Positions 7,635-61,946 of a stretch of 64,000 nt of DNA are shown here, in pieces. The DNA comes from Neopestalotiopsis rosae (taxonomy: Eukaryota; Ascomycota; Sordariomycetes; Amphisphaeriales; Sporocadaceae), in contig JALGAS010000003.1 in NCBI GenBank assembly GCA_023078685.1, positions 5,456,001 through 5,520,000 of the forward strand, in the 5' to 3' direction. The translations under genes were made by a program, and so were the position numbers. Positions within the stretch are counted from its first letter, which is position 1. Every line of letters starts with the position of its first letter. The notes beneath the pieces are model-generated. The model ran no database searches, was not told the DNA's origin, and was given only the letters and a program-made list of their open reading frames with translations.

Positions 7635-8777
7635 CTAAATCATCTTAAACATCTTGCTCGCGTTGGTCTGCTTGCCCGCCTGGCCATGGCCATGGCCCTC
7701 ATCCTCATCCTCGTCCTCGTCGCAGTCCTCACTGGTCTTTGCTGGGTGATGGCTGGTAGTCTTTGTTGGGCGACTCTCGAAAGTGGAAGAGGATGTCTCG
7801 CCGGTCTTCTTGGGGGCATGCTCGTGGGTCTCGGTGGGAACAGTAATCTCGCTGGAGCAAGACGAAGAAGATGAAGAAGGCTTCTCACTAGTCGTCTCGG
7901 GGCCGTGCTTGTGGGTCTTGGTTGGAGTAGTCGTCTCGGTGTAGCAAGGAGAACAAGAAGAGGGCTTCTCAGCAGTCTTCTTGGGGCCGTGCTCGTGAGT
8001 CTTGGTTGGGGTAGTCGTCTCGCTGGAGCAAGAAGAAGAGGGCTTCTCACCAGTCTTCGCGGGGCCGTGCTCGTGGGTCTCGGTGGGAACAGTAATCTCA
8101 CTGGAGCAAGACGAAGAAGATGAAGAAGGCTTCTCACCAGTCTTCGCGGGGCCGCGCTCGTGGGTTTTGGTTGGAGCAGGCTCAGTCGGCTGTGTTCTGA
8201 CCGGGGTGCCGTGGGTGCCGTTGTGGCCGCCATGGGGCTTGCCGCCGTGGCCGTGGTGGGCCCAAGGGGGAGGACCAGGGCTGCGAAAAGGGTCACATGT
8301 CAGGTGTGTTCTGAGCTATGGGATGGGGTCATCGGGAGACAAGGCTTGTGATGTCAAGGGATAGTCAGAATTTGCTTACAAGGGCCACTTGGGACGATTG
8401 TCATCGTCATCCTCGTCATCATCGTCATCATCGTCATCATCGTCATCATCGTCATCATTGTCCTCGTCGTCATCGTCCTCGTCGTCATCATCCTCATCGT
8501 CGTCTTCGTCGTCCTCGTCGTCGCAATTTTTATCATCGTGGTGAAGCTGGTGAAGCTTTTCAGTAACATAGGATTTCCCGCGGGAGCCAGGAGGTAAGGG
8601 ATAATAGCGGGCGAGACCTCTGTCAGACTTGGAGGCCAAGTCTGAGCGGTTGCTGTGCGGGTTGGCCACTGCGAGGGAAGAGTTGAGTCTGCTGTCTCCG
8701 TCCTCCTGGACCATGGGGGCGGAAAGGGCTGGTTTGACAGCAAGGAGGGCGAGGCCCAGAATAGAGTTGAACTTCAT
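7635..8777 (-). CDS. Predicted secreted acidic/histidine-rich tandem-repeat protein
   Basis: Exons are 8777-8380 and 8280-7635, joined across a 99-nt intron (donor GTAAGC, acceptor CGCAG); together they keep frame for 347 residues. The chosen ATG at 8777 begins a signal peptide (MKFNSILGLALLAVKPALSA). It is followed by a 60-residue polar region, a run of about 45 Asp/Glu residues just before the intron, a His/Gly-rich segment at the start of exon 2, then about five tandem units of 26-29 residues (THEHGP..KT.EKP, a serine run, one or two Cys, TPT). The C-terminus is again acidic (DEDEDEDEGHGHGQ). I do not recognise a family. Asp runs beside His-rich segments suggest metal or charged-polymer binding at the cell surface or outside the cell; that is inference only. 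Confidence 0.75.
7740..8165 (-). repeat. Coding tandem repeat array, units of 78-87 bp
   Basis: Unit starts (minus strand, at the codon for the Thr of THEHGP) fall at 8165, 8078, 8000, 7916 and 7829, so the periods are 87, 78, 84 and 87 bases, all multiples of three. Length differences come from the serine run. Units 1 and 4 are almost identical at DNA level through the serine run and ITVPTE segment. The last unit is degenerate. Confidence 0.85.
8398..8524 (-). repeat. GAC/GAT/GAG trinucleotide tract encoding poly-Asp
   Basis: The plus strand reads as a run of CATCAT/CGTCGT triplets, which translates on the minus strand to nearly pure Asp with some Glu. It is a trinucleotide microsatellite inside exon 1 of the secreted repeat protein, so copy-number slippage would change length without breaking frame. 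Confidence 0.85.
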
Positions 8778-11443
8778 CTTGAGGAGAAACAAAGCAGAGG
8801 TGACTTGAGGTCCGAAAGAGTATATGAAGCGAGTGAAAAGTGTTTGTGATCAAAGAAAGGTAGAGATGAGAGACTTCCAACTCCAGGACCTGGGCATCTA
8901 TTTGTATTCAAAAGTTTCCTACAAGTGCAATAGACTTTGTATCATTACTATGCATGCGCACGTAATTTTTAACAACCGTGGCTCAACAAAGTAATCTCGC
9001 CATTTTTGCAGCTTTCATGACGTATAAGGCTTTTGAAGAATCCGTTCAAGCCATCGTGACTTGCAAGCAGTTCGCAACCCTTGGGGCCCTCGAAATACTT
9101 GGCACTCGCCATCATATCACGTAGTATGCAAATGAACTTGGCTGTAAATCATGAGACTTTGGGCCGTGGCTGATGCGGAAAATTCCCAGCTGGGTAGCCT
9201 TGCATAAATGAACTTCAATTTGATGGGGTTTTCTTATTCTCAGTCGGGATTCTCAAACTTACAACTCCTCTTTTCAGGCAGGGTTGTTTTGTGTGGTTGT
9301 GTTTCAAGAATTACACCTCTCTTTCGGTACTGCGCATCTTAATCTCCCTACACCTAGGCAGTTTGCATGCTTAATTTCGAATATTAAAGGACTGGTGTCC
9401 CCAAACCGAGTGTACATGGGTTACAAATTCACTAACGCTGGCAAGTCGTCTGCAACCTTCGTTACCTTGATAGAGCTGCTATTAGTCCAAATCATCTTGC
9501 AATGGGCTTGAAGAAGACACAAGTCCGATACAATTTAACCGCCATCCTTCTTAATACGCGTCACCCGACAAATCATCACAAGCTGAAAGCCCCGGAGCGT
9601 GCAGGACTGGAGAAATTTCAACCCACTCAACATGACATTATTAGGCTTTCTCTAATAAGGGACCGAGGAATGAAAACTCACGTAACCCACGGTACCTTGA
9701 GTGGCTGTGGCCGTTAAACTTAGACGAAGCTTGGAATGCTGTCCAGCCTTTCCCGCAAGCGTTTTATGTACCAACTAGGAAGTACTCTTTCACGTTCAGT
9801 TCTAGCATTCAATGTGATCTGCAATGCAGGGACGTTGCAGCTCCGCAAAGAACGAAAGACGACAACAATTGACCACATATTCTTGTATTTGAGATAACGA
9901 CATGTAGACTTTAAGGCCTACATTTGGCGCCTCTCGGACCTCTAATCTGCCGGCGTCAATGGGTATCAACCTCCAAGGGTGGAAACCAAGACGGGCCGTC
10001 ATGATCTCGCATCCATGATTCCGAGGGAGGGTCTATACTAGGAGAATTGGTAGGCTTCATGTATTGTGCCTGGTCACAAGACGAAGACGCAATGAGCGCC
10101 TGGAGAGGATTCCAGAACAGTAGTGCGTTAGCAGAGACTTGAACCCGCTCGTCCTTTTGCATCATGTGATGGTAGTTCCAGAGGACGTTGATGATTCGCC
10201 ATGTTGCCTTCCTTGGAGTCCATTGGATCTGCCGGGGAACAAACTCGTATGACAGGTCCGTATCAGGTATCCGATGCAGAACTGACATCAAAGTATAAAC
10301 TATCAAGGTTTTTCAGGGTCTGCATATTGCACCCCGAATTCTCGGTCGGACTTGTTGTTTCGTTTTTGATTGGGGAGGGAGAGTGGTGCAAAGTTGCCAA
10401 CAGCAGACACTCCGAAGACCGTTGGCGAGCAAGAAAGGGACGCTCCGAAGGACATCCCCTCGGATATTTTGCATCCAATTTCACCCCTTCACTTGCATGC
10501 CGCATAATTTGGGGCCCCTACCTTGTTGAAATCGTTGGGAACCTTGACACTCATTGTACTCCAACTCCAAACGGGCAGACCTTTGCCAAAAGAAGTATTA
10601 AGTATGACCTCGAAAACTTACTAATATCTTCCTGCTCTTCAAGTCTGAGTGCCTTTCTTCTGTTGTTTGATTGTTGGTGTTTTCAATTACGTTTTGTGAT
10701 ACAGAAAGACCAACCGTTCTGGTAACGAGTGTTGGAATTACAATTTCAAGGGGCTGCCTTCAAATAGTCTTTTGACCTACGGGCCAGTCAGTGTCGAAAT
10801 CGTACAAATTGTCTACGGCTAGAGAAAGACGCAAATTCATAGACGACACATTCCCCAAACTCTTGTTGTATGTAATCATCCATAACATCTCACTGTTACT
10901 CGGTAGACTCGTTTATCATGTTACCTTTAACTGGGAGCAATATTCCCAAACTACCGGTACTCGGTTCGACAAGGATAGGTACGTACCGGGATCAAGTGCT
11001 CTTTAGGGCTTCACCGCCTGCCCAGAAAAGGAAGTAATGCCGGCAATTGGAGCATTAGTGACCCCTCCAAATAACTTTTTTCTCTTGGCGTATGATGCAA
11101 CTTGGACCGAAGAATTGAGCGTTTTACTCGCCGTTAGGTGTGTTGTTTGATTCAACTTTTTGAATTTGAATAAATTCAGTCATTAGAATATACCGCGAAA
11201 TTCTAGAAAAGGTAGGCAAATACAAGAAAAATGCCACCAGTTTTCTTTGCTTCTGACGTCGTTTGCTCAGTCGCCGATTACGGATAGCCGATCTAACACC
11301 AAAACTAGCACCACTCAACTCAAACCCACCTGCTATTGCCGACCACTAGCTGGTCACGAGTTCTTCCTGACAGGGCAGGCACCAGAGTCATATCTCACCA
11401 ATTGTCTTCTCGTCTCCCAATCTGAAGCAATTTCAAAGTCATC
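8778..11443. other. 2.7 kb intergenic interval
   Basis: This lies between the divergent starts of the secreted repeat protein and ADE2, so both promoters are inside it. Apart from a possible gene remnant at 9956-10288 I see no supportable gene. A plus-strand frame at 10201-10725 overlaps that remnant and has no domain character. Confidence 0.55.
9956..10288 (-). pseudogene. Possible coding fragment or gene remnant (110 codons)
   Basis: A frame from ATG 10288 to a stop at 9956 reads like protein rather than noise: aromatic, balanced and with blocks such as ATWRIINVLWNYHHMM and VSANALLFWNPLQALI. No complete domain or neighbouring exon could be joined to it. It may be a relic exon of a decayed gene or a chance frame. 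Confidence 0.25.
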
Positions 11444-52251: not shown

Positions 52252-52734
52252 TTGAAAATAGTACGGACACTTTGAATTACATTAATCAAGTATTAGACAG
52301 CGCTGCGATGATGCAGAGTACCCTCTTCAGGTACGAATATACCCCAATGTAAATAGCTGCAGAGCAATTTGACCACAATACATGACTCTTACAAGGACCC
52401 TGTTCTCGGTGAATGAGCAGTGACGTGGCGTCCACGTTCTCTTACTTGGCCTGTTCTTGAGCTGCCAGAGCAGTTCAATGGGTAATAGAGTACATGTGCG
52501 GATTCAGTTTGGACTCTGGACCCGATTTTGCCGCCCGTCTGTGACACTGCATTCAGCTCTAGTGTCGCCGGAAGGTTTCCCTTTAATCGGGGCAAATCGG
52601 GGCTCCGGCACCAGCTCCAAGACATTGGGCGGAGCAACAAAAGCAATTGAGAAATCACTTCTTGACTTAGATCTCGTTGCTGCTAAATTTGGCCACCCCT
52701 CAAATCGTCGCAACCATCTCTGGAATGATACAAA
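52252..52734. promoter_or_regulatory. Promoter region of the amidohydrolase
   Basis: About 0.5 kb between two genes on the same strand. No specific site identified. Confidence 0.4.
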
Positions 52735-53715
52735 ATGACGCCCCCTCTAATCACCCTGGAGGAGCATTTCCTGTCCGAGAGCGCCGATGATGCTCTGAGG
52801 GCCCTCTACTCGGAGCAAGTGGGGAACATCCCCGAGCTCGCGGCCAAGCTCTCGGATCTCGGACCTATACGCCTACGGTCCATGGACGAGAACAACGTCT
52901 CGATACAAGTCGTATCCCACGGTCCCGGACCAATGCAGCCGGCGCAGTGCCGCGGCGCCAATGACCAGCTCGCGGCCGCGGTCAAGGCCCACCCGGACCG
53001 CTTCGCCGGCTTTGCGGTCCTGCCCGTCTCGGACCCGGACGCGGCCGCCAGTGAGCTCACCCGCTGCGTCCGGGAATTGGGGTTCGTCGGCGCCCTGATT
53101 GATAACCGCTGCGGCAACACGTATTATGACGGCGCGGCGTACGAGCCCCTGTGGGCCGCGGCGCAGGAGCTCGACGTGCCCATCTACCTGCACCCGACGT
53201 GGCCGTCGGGAGAGCAGCTGGACCTGCTGTACACGGGCAATTTCGCGCGGTCCGCCACGCTGTCACTCTCGGCGTCGGGATGGGGCTGGCACTCGGACGT
53301 GGCGCTACACATACTGCGTCTCTTTGCCGCGGGCGTGTTTGATCGGTTCCCCCGCCTCAAGATCATCGCTGGCCACATGGGCGAGATGCTGCCGTTTATG
53401 CTGGACCGCATCGTGCAGCTGAGCCCGCGCTGGGGTGCTCGGGAGCGCGGGTTTGGCGAGGTGTACCGGGCTAATCTTTGGATTACTACTAGTGGTGTCT
53501 GGAGCGTTGATCCCATGGCTACTATACTGCGTAATACGCCGATGGATCATATCCTGTATAGTGTTGATTACCCGTTTGCTCGGAATGAGAATGGGCTCAA
53601 GTTCATGCGGGACCTTGAGGCTAGTGGGTTGGTGAGCGCTGAGCAGTTGGATATGATTGCTTATAAGAATGCTGAGAGGTTGCTTGGACTTAATGTTACC
53701 AAGAAGACGTTTTGA
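52735..53715 (+). CDS. Amidohydrolase-2 family enzyme, dihydroxybenzoate/resorcylate decarboxylase type
   Basis: A single exon, 326 residues, in the ACMSD-like branch of the amidohydrolase superfamily. Metal and catalytic positions are visible: Glu9 and His11 in LEEHF, His153 in YLHPTW, His214 in IAGHMGEMLPF and Asp278 in YSVDYPF. The closest functional group is the cofactor-free aromatic decarboxylases (2,3-dihydroxybenzoate, gamma-resorcylate, salicylate), which reversibly decarboxylate phenolic acids from lignin or plant defence compounds. The substrate cannot be read from the sequence. There is no transporter or regulator next to it. Composition changes within the gene: up to about base 53460 codons are GC-rich, after that GT/AT-richer. 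Confidence 0.87.
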   Translation: MTPPLITLEEHFLSESADDALRALYSEQVGNIPELAAKLSDLGPIRLRSMDENNVSIQVVSHGPGPMQPAQCRGANDQLAAAVKAHPDRFAGFAVLPVSDPDAAASELTRCVRELGFVGALIDNRCGNTYYDGAAYEPLWAAAQELDVPIYLHPTWPSGEQLDLLYTGNFARSATLSLSASGWGWHSDVALHILRLFAAGVFDRFPRLKIIAGHMGEMLPFMLDRIVQLSPRWGARERGFGEVYRANLWITTSGVWSVDPMATILRNTPMDHILYSVDYPFARNENGLKFMRDLEASGLVSAEQLDMIAYKNAERLLGLNVTKKTF

Positions 53716-54457: not shown

Positions 54458-57400
54458 TTATTTTAGCTGGGCCTTGGAAGCGTTCCCTGGGCGTTGAATT
54501 TGATTCAACTGCTCGGCAACTAGCCATACCACCTCCCTGTTGCCACTTTGGACGGCTAGTTGTAGCAGAGTCCGGCCATTCCCATCGACGGCCTCGACAT
54601 CTGCCCCAGTGTGCTTCAGTAGGGCCGCTACGATGGATTTGTCGCTGTTGGCGACAGCGAGCGACAGTGGTGTACGCATGTCGCGACTAGCTAAGTCCTG
54701 TCTTGCGTTCTTCTTTAAAAGCAAGTCAACGACTTCTCCGTGTCCATTTTCGACAGCCAGAGATAGGGCGGTGCGTTTCAAACCGTCTAGACAGTCTAGA
54801 TAGTTCTCATCATCATTGCATTCAAGCAACATACCTGCCAACTTGCCGTTTCCCCGCTCCGCGACAACATGAAGAACTGTTCGCTTGTGGCAATCAGGAA
54901 TCCGTAGGGCGTTATCCCGTGTTTTTAGCAGAATTTCAACAGCCGTCTCTCGGTTGCAATCGGCTGCCAAGAATAGCGGTGTGCGATTCAGCGTGTCTTG
55001 GACAGTCCGCACCGCTTCCTTACTCAGAAGGAGGCGAAGTATGTCATCACTTCCTGTCTCTGCCGCATAGTGTAGGGCCGTTTTCCCCGTTGTATCACGG
55101 AGGTCGAGGTCGATCGTATCCTTCAAGTCTTCAGCCAGGAAGAGTTTCGCAACCTCATCATGTTTGTTCCTCACAGCAATTAGAAGTGCAGTCCGTCCTT
55201 TCGAGTCGGTTTGATTGATCATTACACTTTTGTCAGCTTCTGCGTTCTTGCGAGTGATATTTTCGAGAAGGATTTTCACAATGCTTTGATTTCCAGTCTT
55301 CGCTGCCCAGAGTAGGGGTGTCTGCAGGTTTGAGTCTGGAATACAAGGATCTGCACCAACGCTGAGCAGGAGGTTGACAACGTCATCCTTTTTCTCCTTG
55401 GCCGCTATAAGAATAGCTGAACTGCCACGTCGGTCTGTTACATCTTTATTGACGCTCCGCTCCAAGAGTAGTGTGACCATCGGTACGAAGCCCCACGCAG
55501 CCATTTTCAGGAACAAATCCTCGATATTCTGACTTCGTGGGTTGAAATCGACCTCCCGCGCTAATAGTAACCGGGCGATGTGGTGGTGACCAGCTTTGGC
55601 AGCAAGAAGCCAAGCCTTCTGCTTCAAATTGTCCCGAACATGAGGATCTGCTTTGTTGTTGACCAAGATCTCCACAATCTCGATATTATTGTTTTTTGTT
55701 GCGATATGTAATACGGTTTGCCCTTCCTGGACAATGATATTAGGGTCCGCCCCGTTGCTGAGTAGGACCCGTGTCACTGCTGCCCAGCCTTCCTGGACTG
55801 CCAGACATAGAGGTGTCTGCTGATGGTTATCCATGGCGTCTAGCATCATGTTCGGGCCCCCTCTCTTCATGTAAAGCTTCGCCATAAAGTGGTCACCTCG
55901 TTTTGCAGCCCAATGTAATGGGGTAAGACCGTCCTCGTCCGTAGCCCACAACTCTGCGCCCTTGTTTAGCAAGGCTTCTGCAACGACTGCATAGCCTTGC
56001 TGGGTTGCAAATATAAGGGCTTTCCGTTGGGATATCAACGCATCTCGTACGTTCACCTCCTCTTCCAGAAGTGTTTCGACGACGGACTCAAAGCCTTTCT
56101 CCGCGGCTACCTGCCACGGTTTGTTGTTAGAAGAATCTTGAAGGTCGGAAACAGCGTTGCTCTCGCGGAGCAGCTTGACGATGTCGCGTGATCCACCCAA
56201 GGCTGCTCGATGAAGCGGAGTTTGGCCATTTTTTGATCTGGCATTGGGATTCGCCCTTTCAGCGAGTAACAACCGAACAACGCTTGTCGATGCCCGCTCT
56301 GCTGCGAGATGGAGAGCCTCATCTAAAGCATGGATCTCAGCTTTCCACACAAGTAGACTCCTCACCACGCCGTCGTGACCTCCCCAGGCAGCGTGGTGAA
56401 GCGCGGTCATGTTCTGGCTGTCTTTAGAATTTGGATTCGCATTTCCCTTCAACAGCTTGTCGACAACTTCCTGGTTTCCATTAACCGTAGCCAACGTAAG
56501 AGCAGTTCTTCCTGTTGAATCGCGGCCATTGGGATTTATGTTGGCCGCCAAAAGATGGTGTACTATGCTTCTGTTATCCCTTTCAGCGGCACGTCGTAAT
56601 GCCTCAGGCCCCATCCAATCGTTGATGCTGCCCCTGACTTCCTGATTGGATAGCAACAGTTTGACTATGGATTCGAAGCCGTGCTCGGTGGCCAGCATCA
56701 GAGCTGTACGCTTTTTCTTATCATACGCCACATTTCCGATGCCTCTCCGAAGCAGTTTTTCCACCACTTGAACGTGTCCTCCCATCGTAGCCACATGCAA
56801 GGCAGTACCCTCTTGTTGTTGAAACGTCACATCGGCTTGGTGTTTGAGGAGGACCCCTACAAGTTCAGTCCAACCTCTCCGAGATGCCACGAGCAATGCT
56901 TCATTTACTGCCGTCATGTCTTGGTTGGTCGCGTCGGACGTGGAAAGTAGACTGTCAACAATATCTGCGTGACCTTTGTCCATTGCTCTCTGCCACGCCT
57001 TCTTCCTTTCGTAGTCGAGGAGACTCGAGTCGGAGTCTTTTTCCTGAAGATACTTCACAATCTGACTGTGTCCGCTTTCAGCTGCCAGCATCAGCGCCGT
57101 GCGGCCCGTGTCGTCGCGAGCGTCTAGATACACATCTTCGCTTCTGTGACGTTTGGACTGTTCTTTTTCCTTGTCTGTAAGAAGACGGACGATGGAATCA
57201 TGGCCATTTTGCGCGGCTCTCATCAAAGCTGTGCGGGATTTGTTGTCCGGAAGATTAGGATTTGCTTTCTCCTGAAGAAGGGCCATAACAGAGCTCTCGT
57301 GGCCTCCTTCGGCTGCTAGCAGGAGCGATGTTCGGCCTCTTTTATCCTGCTTGTCAGGATCAATGGACTGGTCTGTCAAAAGAAGCTCATGAACTATTTC

Positions 57401-58163
57401 ATTGCTTCCCATTCCAGCGGCGAGAAGCAGTGGAGTTCGTCCTCCCGCATCTGGGATATCCAGGCTGTTTGCATCGTCATTGAAACGCAGAAGAAGTTTG
57501 ACGACATCGAGCTGATTTAGGCGGACCGCCCAGTGCAATGGAGTCTGATTCTCTTCGTCTTGTATGTCTAGCCGTGCGCGAGATCTGAGCAACGGATACA
57601 ACGCTTCCCACAAAAGGTCCGAAGAAAAGGAGCTCATTTGGTCGTAGGAACGAGTCGCACACGATTCCAAAGCGATATGAATTGCAGTTCTCCCACGGAT
57701 ATCTCGTAAATCGGGATTTGTTGCCAGCTTCGACTGTTCAATCATCCTCCCAATGATGTCGAAATGACCATGTTCGGCAGCATAGTGCAGTGCTGTGTAA
57801 TTCCTATTATCTTGCATATTTATATCGGCACCGGAGCGTAGGAGTTCATCAATGCCTCTGCGATCATTCTTCTGGACAGCCATAATCAAAGGAGTACGTT
57901 TCTCACCGTCCGATTTATCAGGGTCGGCTTTTAATACAAGCAGGAGATGTTGAATCAGAAGCCGCTTCCCATTCTGTATTGCAAACATAAGTGCTGTCTG
58001 GCCGCTCCCATCCTGATGGTTGGGGTCTCGAATCAACTTCATCAGTTCCTTTGTGACCGATGAGGTACATGTAGCAGCCGCAGGAGAAAATAAGAGTAGA
58101 GTGGCCAGACTCTCTCGAAGCTCTGCTTTCTTAATCTTGTCGTAAAGCATTAGCGAGATTTCC

Positions 58164-58171
58164 AAAAAAAA
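58164..58171 (-). other. Eight-base homopolymer frameshift between ankyrin repeats
   Basis: The plus strand has A8 here. The repeat reads ALKLATQAGF in one frame before it and LEISLML in another frame after it. Six bases would keep the ankyrin spacing; nine would also keep frame with one extra residue. Eight do not. Confidence 0.75.
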
Positions 58172-61100
58172 CCTGCTTGAGTTGCGAGCTTGAGTGCCTT
58201 TTCTGTTGCCTTATCTTTCAGTGTCGTTTCGGGGTGCGTGAGTATGACGTGGACAACTTCGTGGAATCCTCTCATTGCTGCCCAACCAAGGGCACTTTTC
58301 TCGGACTCATCGTCTCGCATGGGGTCGCTTCTTTCTCCAAGTAGTACTCGAACCACCTCCGTTCGCCCGAATTGTGCTGCTAAGATCAAGGCGCATCGGC
58401 CGTCCTTATCAGGCTGAGAGGCAATGGCGCCTTCTTCAAGGAGGGCCTCTGTGATTTCACAATTTCCCTTTTGTGCAGCTAGCTGTAGAGCTGTGTGGTC
58501 ATGTGCATCTTTGTAATGTAATATGGCCTTGTTGCCTCTGCCAGCCAGTTCCTTGGCTATATCCACCTGCAGTCTCAAAGCTGCCCAGTGAAGCGCAGTT
58601 CTGTCCCTTAAGTCTTTGCTTGTGATGTCTGCCCCCTTTTCCAATAACGCCGCGACAATATCCTTGCGTCCGTAGTACGCCGCCATCACAAGGGCGGACT
58701 GTTGCTCATTCTTGCTCTTCTTTTCCAGATGTTCATCATGCTGCTTCATGAAGCCAATAAGACTTTCGGCGATAAATTCACCGTTTCCTCTGATTTTGAT
58801 GGCCCAATGTAGGGCCGTCATTCCGTCGACATCCGCGGGACCCGACCTGGCTCCAACTGAGACAAGTTTTGAGATGACTTTCTTGAAATTTTCCATTGGG
58901 CCGCCCGATACATTCATAATAGCCGAAAGCAACGCGGCGTCAAGCCCATCTTGGTCCCACAAGATGAGTCGATCTTTGTCCGTTTGATCCTGATCGGGCT
59001 GATCTTTCCCGGGTTGATACTGGAACAGTATCTCCACCGCCTCGACGTTTCCGTACTTGGCGGCCAGTGTTAAAGCAGTTTCATCTGATGGGTCAGACAC
59101 AGAAGTTCCTGCCCCATGAGCCAACAAAAGTTCCAAGACATTGGATTTGCCCTCCCGTGATGCCAACTGCAATGCCGTCCTCTTATCACTGTTGACAGCA
59201 TTAATATTGGCCTCCTGCGTAAATTGAGGATGCATCTGCTCGATAACACTCCTGCCTAACGGCTTGCAGCCAGCACCATCACCTTCAGATCCCTTATCTC
59301 TGGCTCTGGAAGACGCTGGAGGCATCGATTCTTTCTGACACCGGGCCTTAGCATGGTTGAGCAGAGCTTGAACACAACTCACATCGCCATTAACAGCAGC
59401 GTGGTGCAGAGGGAAGTTCTGACCTTTGTCAGGCACGTCCGTAGCAGCACCTGCCCCGATAAGCAGTCGCACCATACCGAGATGGCCCTTCTGGACTGCC
59501 ACGTTCAAGGCGGTGCACCCATCTCGATCTTGTTCATTCAAATCGCCCGGCTCCATGTGTTTGAAAATCTCTCTGGCTATTGCGGTCAAGCCTTTCTTGG
59601 CCGCCAGATGGATTCCGCTAAACGTCTGATTCTGATCTTTGTCTGGCTTGACTAGGTAGATGGAACTTGTTAGCAGCAGTTTTAAAGACAACAATTTCTT
59701 CTGTTCCGAGCGGCAGAATATATTGGCGACTGACCTTTGCGTTTTGGATCATCTAATGCTCCATTTCCCAGCAAGAACTTGACAAGAGACGCTGCCAAGC
59801 TTTGCTCTCCATTCTCTACATTCTCCCCATTGTCTTCCGTCTCCTCATTCTCCATGACTAATCGGAGAGCTTCTCCTTCAAGGTGCGAACCTTTTGCGGA
59901 AAGCTCGCTAGCATCGACCTGTATCATCCGATTCTCAGCCGAAGACAAGTGCATCATTCTGCGAGTCTTCACAGTCCCTTCAGTCTTCGCTATATCTCCT
60001 GTCTCCATAAGTGACTTCTCCAACCAATCTTTGACTTTTTGAACCAAATCTTCGTGGCCGTAGAAGAATGCCTCTATGGACATTGATTTGGTGTTGTTCT
60101 CATGCGTGCAGTACATTACCATACCATCGGGCAATTTGGGTCGAGGTAAGGGCAGCTTAAGAATCCTCGATGACTCAAGGAACAGCTGTTCTCGTATCTC
60201 CTCCGTGCTGGAACTTAGGAACAAGAGTGCCTTCATATCCTGTCGACCGTAGTCATCGTCGTCAAGCACTGTTGGCGTGGGCCAAGCCATTTCTGCCCGA
60301 TTTGGTATGAGTTCCATAGATGTCTTGTGTTTCCCGAATGTCTTGCGAAGAAAGTACCACTTGCTTGATCCGATACTCTGCATCTTGTCATTTTTTGTTA
60401 TCCTAATCTTGAGGAGTTGACCCTTGGAGCCATCTTTCCTACTGCCAAGTGCCGGGTGGAAGTAGACTGGCCCCACAAAACGACAGGAGATGACATCCGT
60501 TAATTTGCCCTCCCAGTGCGTGGGTTGAACAAGTAGTGCTCTTGTGCAGTTTCCTGGTGTGTTTTCGGCCAGAAGAAGGTGCTGGAGTTTTCTTCCTTTT
60601 GCGCCTAACGCCGACTTCAAAGAGGCTCGTGTAAGATCATGCGTGCCCTGCCAGACAAAATCGCTGTGTTCGACGTTGTCGGTCAAGTACACCTTCCACG
60701 TTCCTACGAGGTCGCCATTCTCTTGCAGATCAAGCCATACTGACTGGTCATTCATTTCCGTCCTAGGAATATCTAGGATGTTTGTTGGACACCAGCTGAA
60801 ACCGGGCGCGGCCATGGTTGCTGCTGAATTGTGGAAGAGATGGCCTTGCGCAACTTTGCCTAGCTTGCGTAGTATTCGTTGGTAAATTTCTTGCTGCGAT
60901 GAACCTCCAGAAACGTCCACTCCTGCCAATAAACCCGAGATTATGGGTATGTCCCGGAGTTTTGACGTGTCACGAGGACTTAAAATAGACGACAAGTCGT
61001 CCAAGGTTCTTATCTTAGCCCTCCTGAGCGTGCGGATAGCCTCCGCTGTGGGATGATGTCGAGAAACCTTGTCGAGTATATCAACGTCAAGGTCTTTGAT

Positions 61101-61355
61101 CGAGGAACCACCATTACTCGATTTGAAAAGGATATGGACTTTGCGAGACTTCGCCAGTTCTAAAGCTGTCCAACCTCTACTATACCACGGCGACATAACG
61201 ATTGCGAAGCAGGCTGTCTCAGCATCGACCCATTGCCATTCACGAAGGTATAGATCATGAACCAGTGTCACTCTGGCTTGAGCATAGTTGTCGTGCATGG
61301 TATTGAGAGCCTCATTGCGCAACTTGTCGGTTCGTGGAATGCTAATAGTGTCCCA

Positions 61356-61358
61356 CTA
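61356..61358 (-). other. In-frame TAG inside the HET domain
   Basis: Codon 197 of the HET-ankyrin gene. Codons on both sides belong to one continuous HET motif, and in relatives the motif reads with two Trp in a row where this gene has stop-Trp; a single TGG-to-TAG change explains it. On the plus strand that is CpA-to-TpA. Confidence 0.7.
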
Positions 61359-61946
61359 GCAACCTTCGCACTGGAACGAGCGAGCTAGGTCACAAAAGAA
61401 CCTGTAAAGACATGCGTTCACTTTTCCCGGACCCCAGATTCCAGCACCTGTACCGTCGGCCCAGACATGCGATACAGCCATATACGGCTGCTCCGAGTCA
61501 ATCAAAGATGGTGCATCACCCGACTCGCCCAAAACTAACCTCCAAGCTGTTGCGCTTTCCGTTTCGACCCTGTGATCCAGCAGCTGCAAGGGAAAGTGGA
61601 ATTTCCTGCAATTTCCCTCTTTTTCACAATCTTCGTGAAGCTGTTCCACCAATGTGAAGTCGAGTTGGGAATGTTCGCAGAAGTCAAATGTGCATTGCTC
61701 ATGCTCATGGTGCTGTCGTTTCTGACTGGGGGCTGAGTACATGTCGGCGGCAGGTATGAGGCTTGGGAGGCTGCGTGCTCCACCAGGGAGACCGGACGAG
61801 ACAGCCCAGATGCGTCGAGGACAGACCTTCAAGCCTTTCGCCCGTTCGACAGCTTCCAAGATGTCACTATCGTCATCGCCACCACTCCATCCCGAGGCAA
61901 TGTTGGATCGGATGCTATCTCTCCGTGGTCGATACCCCCAGGACAT

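What the first reader, a model, noticed from the sequence alone, without database searches (positions are those of the whole stretch)
61356..61358. Amber stop inside an otherwise intact HET domain, in a RIP-type sequence context
The stop splits one HET motif and the frame stays open for more than 530 codons after it. A single TGG-to-TAG change accounts for it; on the other strand this is CpA-to-TpA, the signature of repeat-induced point mutation. Inactive HET alleles are a known way for a strain to escape incompatibility, so this may be a natural null allele. A single change is also what random mutation or a base-call error would look like.
Basis: partly seen in the sequence, partly recalled or inferred. 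Interest (0 to 1): 0.75.

Follow-up and report, generated by a model that had tools for sequence, protein, structure and literature searches.

The report
Broken self-recognition gene in a fungus
A very large fungal gene of the kind that can trigger cell death when unlike strains fuse carries a premature stop at a highly conserved position and at least one more frame break, so it is most likely an ordinary dead or silenced copy, without the marks of the mutation process first suspected.

Summary
The amber codon at 61356-61358 (minus strand) is real in this sequence. It falls inside a divergent HET domain, and 557 open codons follow it. Of 120 listed homologues, 107 span the site and 107 of 107 have tryptophan there, so a lost Trp codon is well supported.

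(1) The gene is not otherwise intact. The ankyrin part changes frame at an 8-base T run (about 58.17 kb), where the paralogue's residues run on. It changes again near 59.7 kb, where an intron or a second frameshift fits. (2) RIP is not supported. Indices are ordinary, 0 of 255 windows look RIPped, the only DNA relative found is 67% identical, and transitions against it are balanced, 78 to 81. Trp-to-amber is CpA-to-TpA by construction.

The genome is Neopestalotiopsis or very close. Of 150 HET matches scored, 9 carry in-frame stops, no higher rate than in two small control families.

Best reading: an ordinary recent HET-ankyrin null or pseudogene. Boldest open reading: A-to-I correction of UAG in fruiting bodies, but the adenosine sits in a predicted stem.

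The parts
61356..61358 (-). in-frame TAG inside the HET domain, at the first W of the WWD(T/S) motif
   Evidence: W in 107 of 107 spanning homologues of 120 listed
61359..61946 (-). N-terminal piece: first Met of the open frame and first part of the HET domain, 196 codons before the stop
   Evidence: 72% identity to P0006 over residues 99-278 of P0005, reaching the last residue before the stop
59685..61355 (-). rest of the HET domain, then linker, to the start of the ankyrin region; 557 open codons
   Evidence: residues 2-32 match PF06985 positions 53-84 only weakly on their own (E 0.074)
59646..59734 (-). first frame break: ankyrin repeat read in two frames; also holds a well-formed 83-nt intron candidate (59734-59652, GTCAGT...GCTAAC...CCTAG) that would keep the frame. 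Unresolved.
   Evidence: P0009, P0010, P0011 code straight through; intron motif; a 92-nt variant shares the donor; coding score inconclusive
58153..59748 (-). ankyrin block 1, in a second frame
58164..58171 (-). second frame break at a run of eight T (sense strand); only a loose intron candidate here
   Evidence: in the paralogue one residue lies between the two aligned pieces; the stretch after the break scores +5.29 over 16 codons against 3.65 +/- 2.95 over 17 in control coding sequence
54458..58210 (-). ankyrin block 2, in a third frame, to the end of the gene

Best explanation
This is a very large HET-ankyrin gene (61946 down to 54458, about 7.5 kb) that has recently lost function by ordinary mutation. 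The amber codon ends translation after 196 codons, about a third of the way into the HET domain and before the ankyrin repeats. A separate shift at a T8 run breaks the ankyrin part, and a third break near 59.7 kb is either a shift or an intron. Shown: the stop, the conserved Trp, the frame changes, an uninterrupted HET domain in the paralogue, and no RIP signature. Inferred: that the gene makes no working protein, that the loss is recent (two or three lesions in about 2,500 codons), and that it may free the strain from one incompatibility reaction. Whether the allele is fixed or varies among strains cannot be told from one genome.
For: W in 107 of 107 spanning homologues. Frame change at T8 with paralogue residues running on (one residue between the aligned pieces) and a coding score beyond the run. 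The C6 paralogue has a Trp codon at this site and an open frame of 1681 aa. Stops in HET domains recur in the genome: 9 of the 150 scored matches have them; of these 9, 8 have a single stop, one of them (L039) TGA at the equivalent Trp of the same motif. No RIP signature.
Against: One assembly, no reads: a T8 run is where long-read assemblies can err (recalled), and without that shift, and with an intron at 59.7 kb, the stop would be the only lesion. Apart from these sites the 7.5-kb gene stays open, which an old pseudogene would not. Stops inside matches are not rarer in the control families (3 of 19 scored adh_short loci; 4 of 12 Sugar_tr match rows from 9 scored loci; introns not separated), so HET genes are not shown to decay faster.
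Confidence: 0.8

Rival explanations
1. Premature-stop-correction editing: during sexual development the UAG is edited to UGG by the Tad2-Tad3-Ame1 or an OLD-type deaminase, so the cell-death domain is made only then.
For: The genome is a Sordariomycete. UAG-to-UGG correction is known there, with U at -1 and A or G at +1 and +3 preferred (PMC11156358); the site TAGTGG fits. Six OTT_1508 (OLD-like) deaminase loci were found in the genome. Editing that holds back costly genes is described (PMC12754623).
Against: The preferred place is a hairpin loop, but this A is unpaired with probability only 0.003-0.024 at 8 of 8 flank sizes. At flank 30 only 3 of 100 TAG triplets of the gene and its paralogue, the site included, are as paired; at flank 50 it is an unremarkable 21 of 98. 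The fit of the letters follows from TAG before a conserved TGG. None of the 107 spanning homologues carries the stop, but these are predicted proteins, which could not show one. At least one frame break follows downstream. Stops in the 8 other single-stop HET domains are not mainly TAG (2 TAG, 3 TGA, 3 TAA). None of the six OTT_1508 loci lies on the window's contig C11.
Confidence: 0.04
2. The stop, the shifts, or both are assembly or base-call errors and the gene is whole.
For: One break lies in a T8 homopolymer, and both breaks shift the frame in the same direction.
Against: Two near-identical 5.5-kb copies on C1 and C17 differ by 9 substitutions and 0 indels, though 11 kb is a small sample. 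Three other long reading frames in the window are open over 868, 980 and 1049 codons. A substitution is the rarer error in long-read assemblies (recalled; how this genome was sequenced is not known).
Confidence: 0.1
3. RIP made the stop, for example on a duplicate since lost.
For: Trp-to-amber is a RIP-compatible change. RID-like (L025) and DIM-2-like (L024) methyltransferase genes exist.
Against: Ordinary RIP indices and 0 of 255 RIP-like windows; balanced transitions, 78 to 81; only relative found 67% identical, where RIP needs about 80% (recalled); the C1/C17 duplicate is not RIPped. RIP does not make frameshifts (recalled).
Confidence: 0.04
4. An unrecognised intron removes the stop.
For: A 66-nt in-phase GT...TAG segment ends exactly at the stop (read by eye).
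Against: No GT...RCTRAY...YAG candidate of 45-120 nt was found within the 230 bases around the stop, even with a free donor. The segment would delete 22 codons, stop included, of a stretch that aligns well in the homologues.
Confidence: 0.02

Closest known systems
HET-ankyrin proteins of Pezizomycotina (for example P0009 of Xylaria curta, P0008 of Cytospora schulzeri, and the C6 paralogue)
   Same: same block with the WWD motif, linker, then ankyrin repeats
   Different: the window copy carries a stop inside the HET domain and one or two frame breaks in the ankyrin part
Inactive het alleles of Podospora anserina (het-r and het-e; passages of PMC2873952)
   Same: HET genes inactivated by small changes; the passages report one-base indels leading to premature stops in escape mutants, and name a natural inactive het-r allele
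   Different: HET-NACHT-WD genes with a known reaction; here the partner domain is ankyrin and no reaction is known
Premature-stop-correction genes of Fusarium graminearum and Neurospora (PUK1, AMD1, zao; PMC11156358 parts 1-2, PMC12754623 part 1)
   Same: in-frame UAG in a Sordariomycete gene; PUK1 has TAGTAG converted to TGGTGG
   Different: no expression data here, predicted stem instead of loop, and a downstream frame break

Membership tests
HET domain (PF06985) | match to the HET profile above the curated cut-off | tested here: inconclusive
   Pieces taken apart fall below cut-off (P0005 none, P0002 13.8 bits, E 0.074); five of five relatives tested pass (P0006, P0009, P0012, P0063, P0099), the C6 paralogue just misses (22.1 against 22.5 bits)
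HET domain (PF06985) | alignable to proteins that carry the domain | tested here: met
   both pieces align to P0006, P0012, P0063 and others, meeting at the stop
ankyrin repeat protein | tandem ankyrin repeats above Pfam cut-off | tested here: met
   Ank_2 E 6.6e-66 (P0003) and 2.3e-201 (P0004)
pseudogene / null allele | reading frame disrupted relative to homologues | tested here: met
pseudogene / null allele | no full-length product | not testable with these tools
   no RNA or protein data
RIP-mutated sequence | raised TpA/ApT and lowered (CpA+TpG)/(ApC+GpT) | tested here: not met
   0.576 and 1.351 over the gene; 0 of 255 windows of the 64 kb RIP-like
RIP-mutated sequence | duplicated partner of high identity | tested here: not met
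   one further DNA match found in the genome, 67% (the search skips very common words); a lost partner cannot be excluded
premature-stop-correction editing site | U at -1, A or G at +1 and +3 | tested here: met
   TAGTGG, preference from PMC11156358; forced by UAG before a conserved Trp codon
premature-stop-correction editing site | edited A in a hairpin loop | tested here: not met
   P(unpaired) 0.003-0.024; a preference, not an absolute rule
premature-stop-correction editing site | G in RNA where DNA has A | not testable with these tools
   no RNA-seq

The most novel reading that the evidence does not exclude
A cell-death (HET) gene is kept shut in hyphae by an amber codon in its own domain and opened only during sexual development by A-to-I correction of UAG to UGG. 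Editing would then act as a safety catch on an incompatibility protein whose ankyrin part is cut back by the frame break.
Probability: 0.04. Interest if true: 0.75.

Novelty: new member of a known kind. Interest (0 to 1): 0.22.

Why it matters
HET genes limit fusion between unlike strains, and natural nulls tell how that barrier is lost. This is one clear example, with a conserved Trp hit and a paralogue whose HET domain is open, in a genome with many HET genes. It also shows that a 'RIP context' call on a single Trp-to-amber change is empty, because the context follows from the codon. The editing alternative is testable with one RNA-seq experiment.

Tried and rejected
Considered and set aside. 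RIP: indices, duplicate search, transition balance and an un-RIPped duplicate all speak against it. An intron over the stop: none found in the 230 bases scanned. A 50-nt intron at the T8 break: donor GTTTTT, only a loose match (loose matches occur about 2.2 per kb in control coding sequence), and the segment scores as coding. The 83-nt intron near 59.7 kb is left open: the strict motif occurs 3 times in 29.6 kb of control coding sequence, one of the three in this gene's own ankyrin block 2, so it is a good candidate; but three homologues code through the segment, and coding scores were inconclusive (-0.26 over 10 codons and -0.28 over 17 in the two frames, between coding and off-frame means, with a third frame at +6.1). 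An OLD-ZAO-like neighbour: none of six OTT_1508 loci is on C11. Faster decay of HET genes than of other families: not shown. A search with ankyrin piece P0003 listed ankyrin proteins of at most 38% identity and did not show a neighbour of P0006 (best 120 of 3446). Paper searches for HET with RNA editing and for Neopestalotiopsis with heterokaryon incompatibility found 0 papers in that library. A fold of 101 nt around the stop was no more stable than shuffles (z -0.84).

Papers: PMC11156358, parts 1 and 2 of 3; PMC12754623, part 1 of 3; PMC13412767, PMC2873952, PMC13215550 and PMC11882029, passages only (the last two gave nothing on RIP in Neopestalotiopsis); the rest, listings only.

Full report
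Observation. The minus strand has TAG at 61358-61356, between a piece that ends SFQCEGC and a piece that begins WDTISIPRTDK. The first Met of the open frame is at 61946, and the frame stays open for 557 codons after the stop.

Conservation of the site. A protein search with the downstream piece gave 147 homologues among 7997 scored candidates, of which 120 were listed. I compared both pieces with these 120. In 107 the match to the downstream piece begins at its first residue with a residue before it; that residue is W in 107 of 107. In the other 13 the match begins further downstream. Pfam HET spans the position in P0006, P0009, P0012, P0063 and P0099, five of five relatives tested, while the broken pieces alone do not reach the cut-off and the C6 paralogue just misses it. 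That paralogue (59% over residues 1-349 of the downstream piece) has an uninterrupted frame of 1681 aa and a Trp codon here.

Rest of the gene. The ankyrin part lies in two further frames. At about 58.17 kb the frame changes at eight T. In the paralogue the pieces on the two sides align to neighbouring residues with one residue between them, and the stretch after the break scores as coding, +5.29 over 16 codons against 3.65 +/- 2.95 over 17 for control coding sequence. This is a frameshift in the sequence as given, real or an assembly error. Near 59.7 kb the frame changes inside an ankyrin repeat that P0009, P0010 and P0011 code through. An 83-nt intron candidate with GTCAGT, GCTAAC and CCTAG would also keep the frame; a 92-nt variant shares its donor. 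Such a strict motif was found 3 times in 29.6 kb of control coding sequence. P0006, the closest homologue, also ends at this place. Coding scores there were inconclusive. I leave this break open.

RIP. Over the gene TpA/ApT is 0.576 and (CpA+TpG)/(ApC+GpT) is 1.351; the window as a whole has 0.628 and 1.311, and the 500 bases around the stop 0.700 and 1.246; 0 of 255 500-bp windows pass RIP-like cut-offs (1.1 and 0.75, recalled). The only other DNA match found in the genome is 67% identical. Over 1062 aligned bases of that match, transition sites with A/T in the gene number 78 and with G/C in the gene 81. Two 5.5-kb copies on C1 and C17 are 99.84% identical with 9 substitutions and 0 indels, so recent duplicates need not be RIPped here, although RID-like and DIM-2-like genes are present. 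Any Trp codon that becomes amber by one transition is CpA-to-TpA on the other strand, so that context cannot count as evidence.

Organism. The RID-like protein is 99% identical over 98% to a Neopestalotiopsis clavispora protein and 77% over 90% to one of Pestalotiopsis fici. N. clavispora belongs to the Sordariomycetes, order Amphisphaeriales. Species identity is inferred from this one protein.

Base rate. A HET profile search of the genome had 350 candidates and scored 150, all of which matched; 9 of 150 had in-frame stops. The window's own locus is not among the 150 listed. I fetched the 9: one (L038) has an intron-like segment with four stops, 8 have a single stop (2 TAG, 3 TGA, 3 TAA), and L039 has TGA at the same Trp of the motif as the window. 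Several of the 8 stops lie in the variable middle part of the domain, where a short intron cannot be excluded. Control families had stops in 3 of 19 scored loci (adh_short) and in 4 of 12 match rows from 9 scored loci (Sugar_tr); introns were not separated, so no excess in HET genes is claimed.

Editing. Fungal A-to-I editing corrects premature UAG to UGG in Sordariomycetes, with preference for U at -1, A or G at +1 and +3, and hairpin loops (PMC11156358). OLD-type deaminases correct UAG in antiviral genes (PMC12754623). The site fits the letters but not the structure: the A is unpaired with probability 0.003-0.024 for 8 of 8 flank sizes. Among TAG triplets of the gene and its paralogue, the site included, 3 of 100 are as paired at flank 30, but 21 of 98 at flank 50. 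With a downstream frame break and no conserved stop in sight, I give this 0.04.

Verdict. A recent null or pseudogene of a HET-ankyrin gene, interest low to moderate.

Noticed in passing
whole genome G000: 150 of 150 scored HET candidates matched (350 in the first look), a large repertoire.
   Followed up: partly
L039 (G000:C4:947761-948189, minus strand): Another HET domain with a stop (TGA) at the same Trp of the motif.
   Followed up: partly
L030 (C1:6075500-6081000) and L031 (C17:3109400-3114900): 5.5 kb that are 99.84% identical on two contigs, holding a HET match, without RIP marks; the ends of the duplication were not found.
   Followed up: partly
G000, loci L018-L023: Six OTT_1508-type deaminase (OLD-like) loci; neighbours not examined for zao-like genes.
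   Followed up: no
L025 952-3243, minus strand: The RID-like methyltransferase frame is open over 763 codons, whereas FgRID of Fusarium graminearum is listed among genes that need premature-stop correction (PMC11156358).
   Followed up: no
L015 6290-6416: In the C6 paralogue the ankyrin frame changes once more across a stretch with intron-like ends (GTATGT...TTGCAG), by eye.
   Followed up: partly
window 7635-8849, minus strand: Open frames of low complexity: Thr/Ser/Pro-rich repeats and a long run of Asp/Glu.
   Followed up: no
window 52729-53715, plus strand: Amidohydrolase (PF04909) open frame, beyond the 3' end of the HET-ankyrin gene.
   Followed up: no
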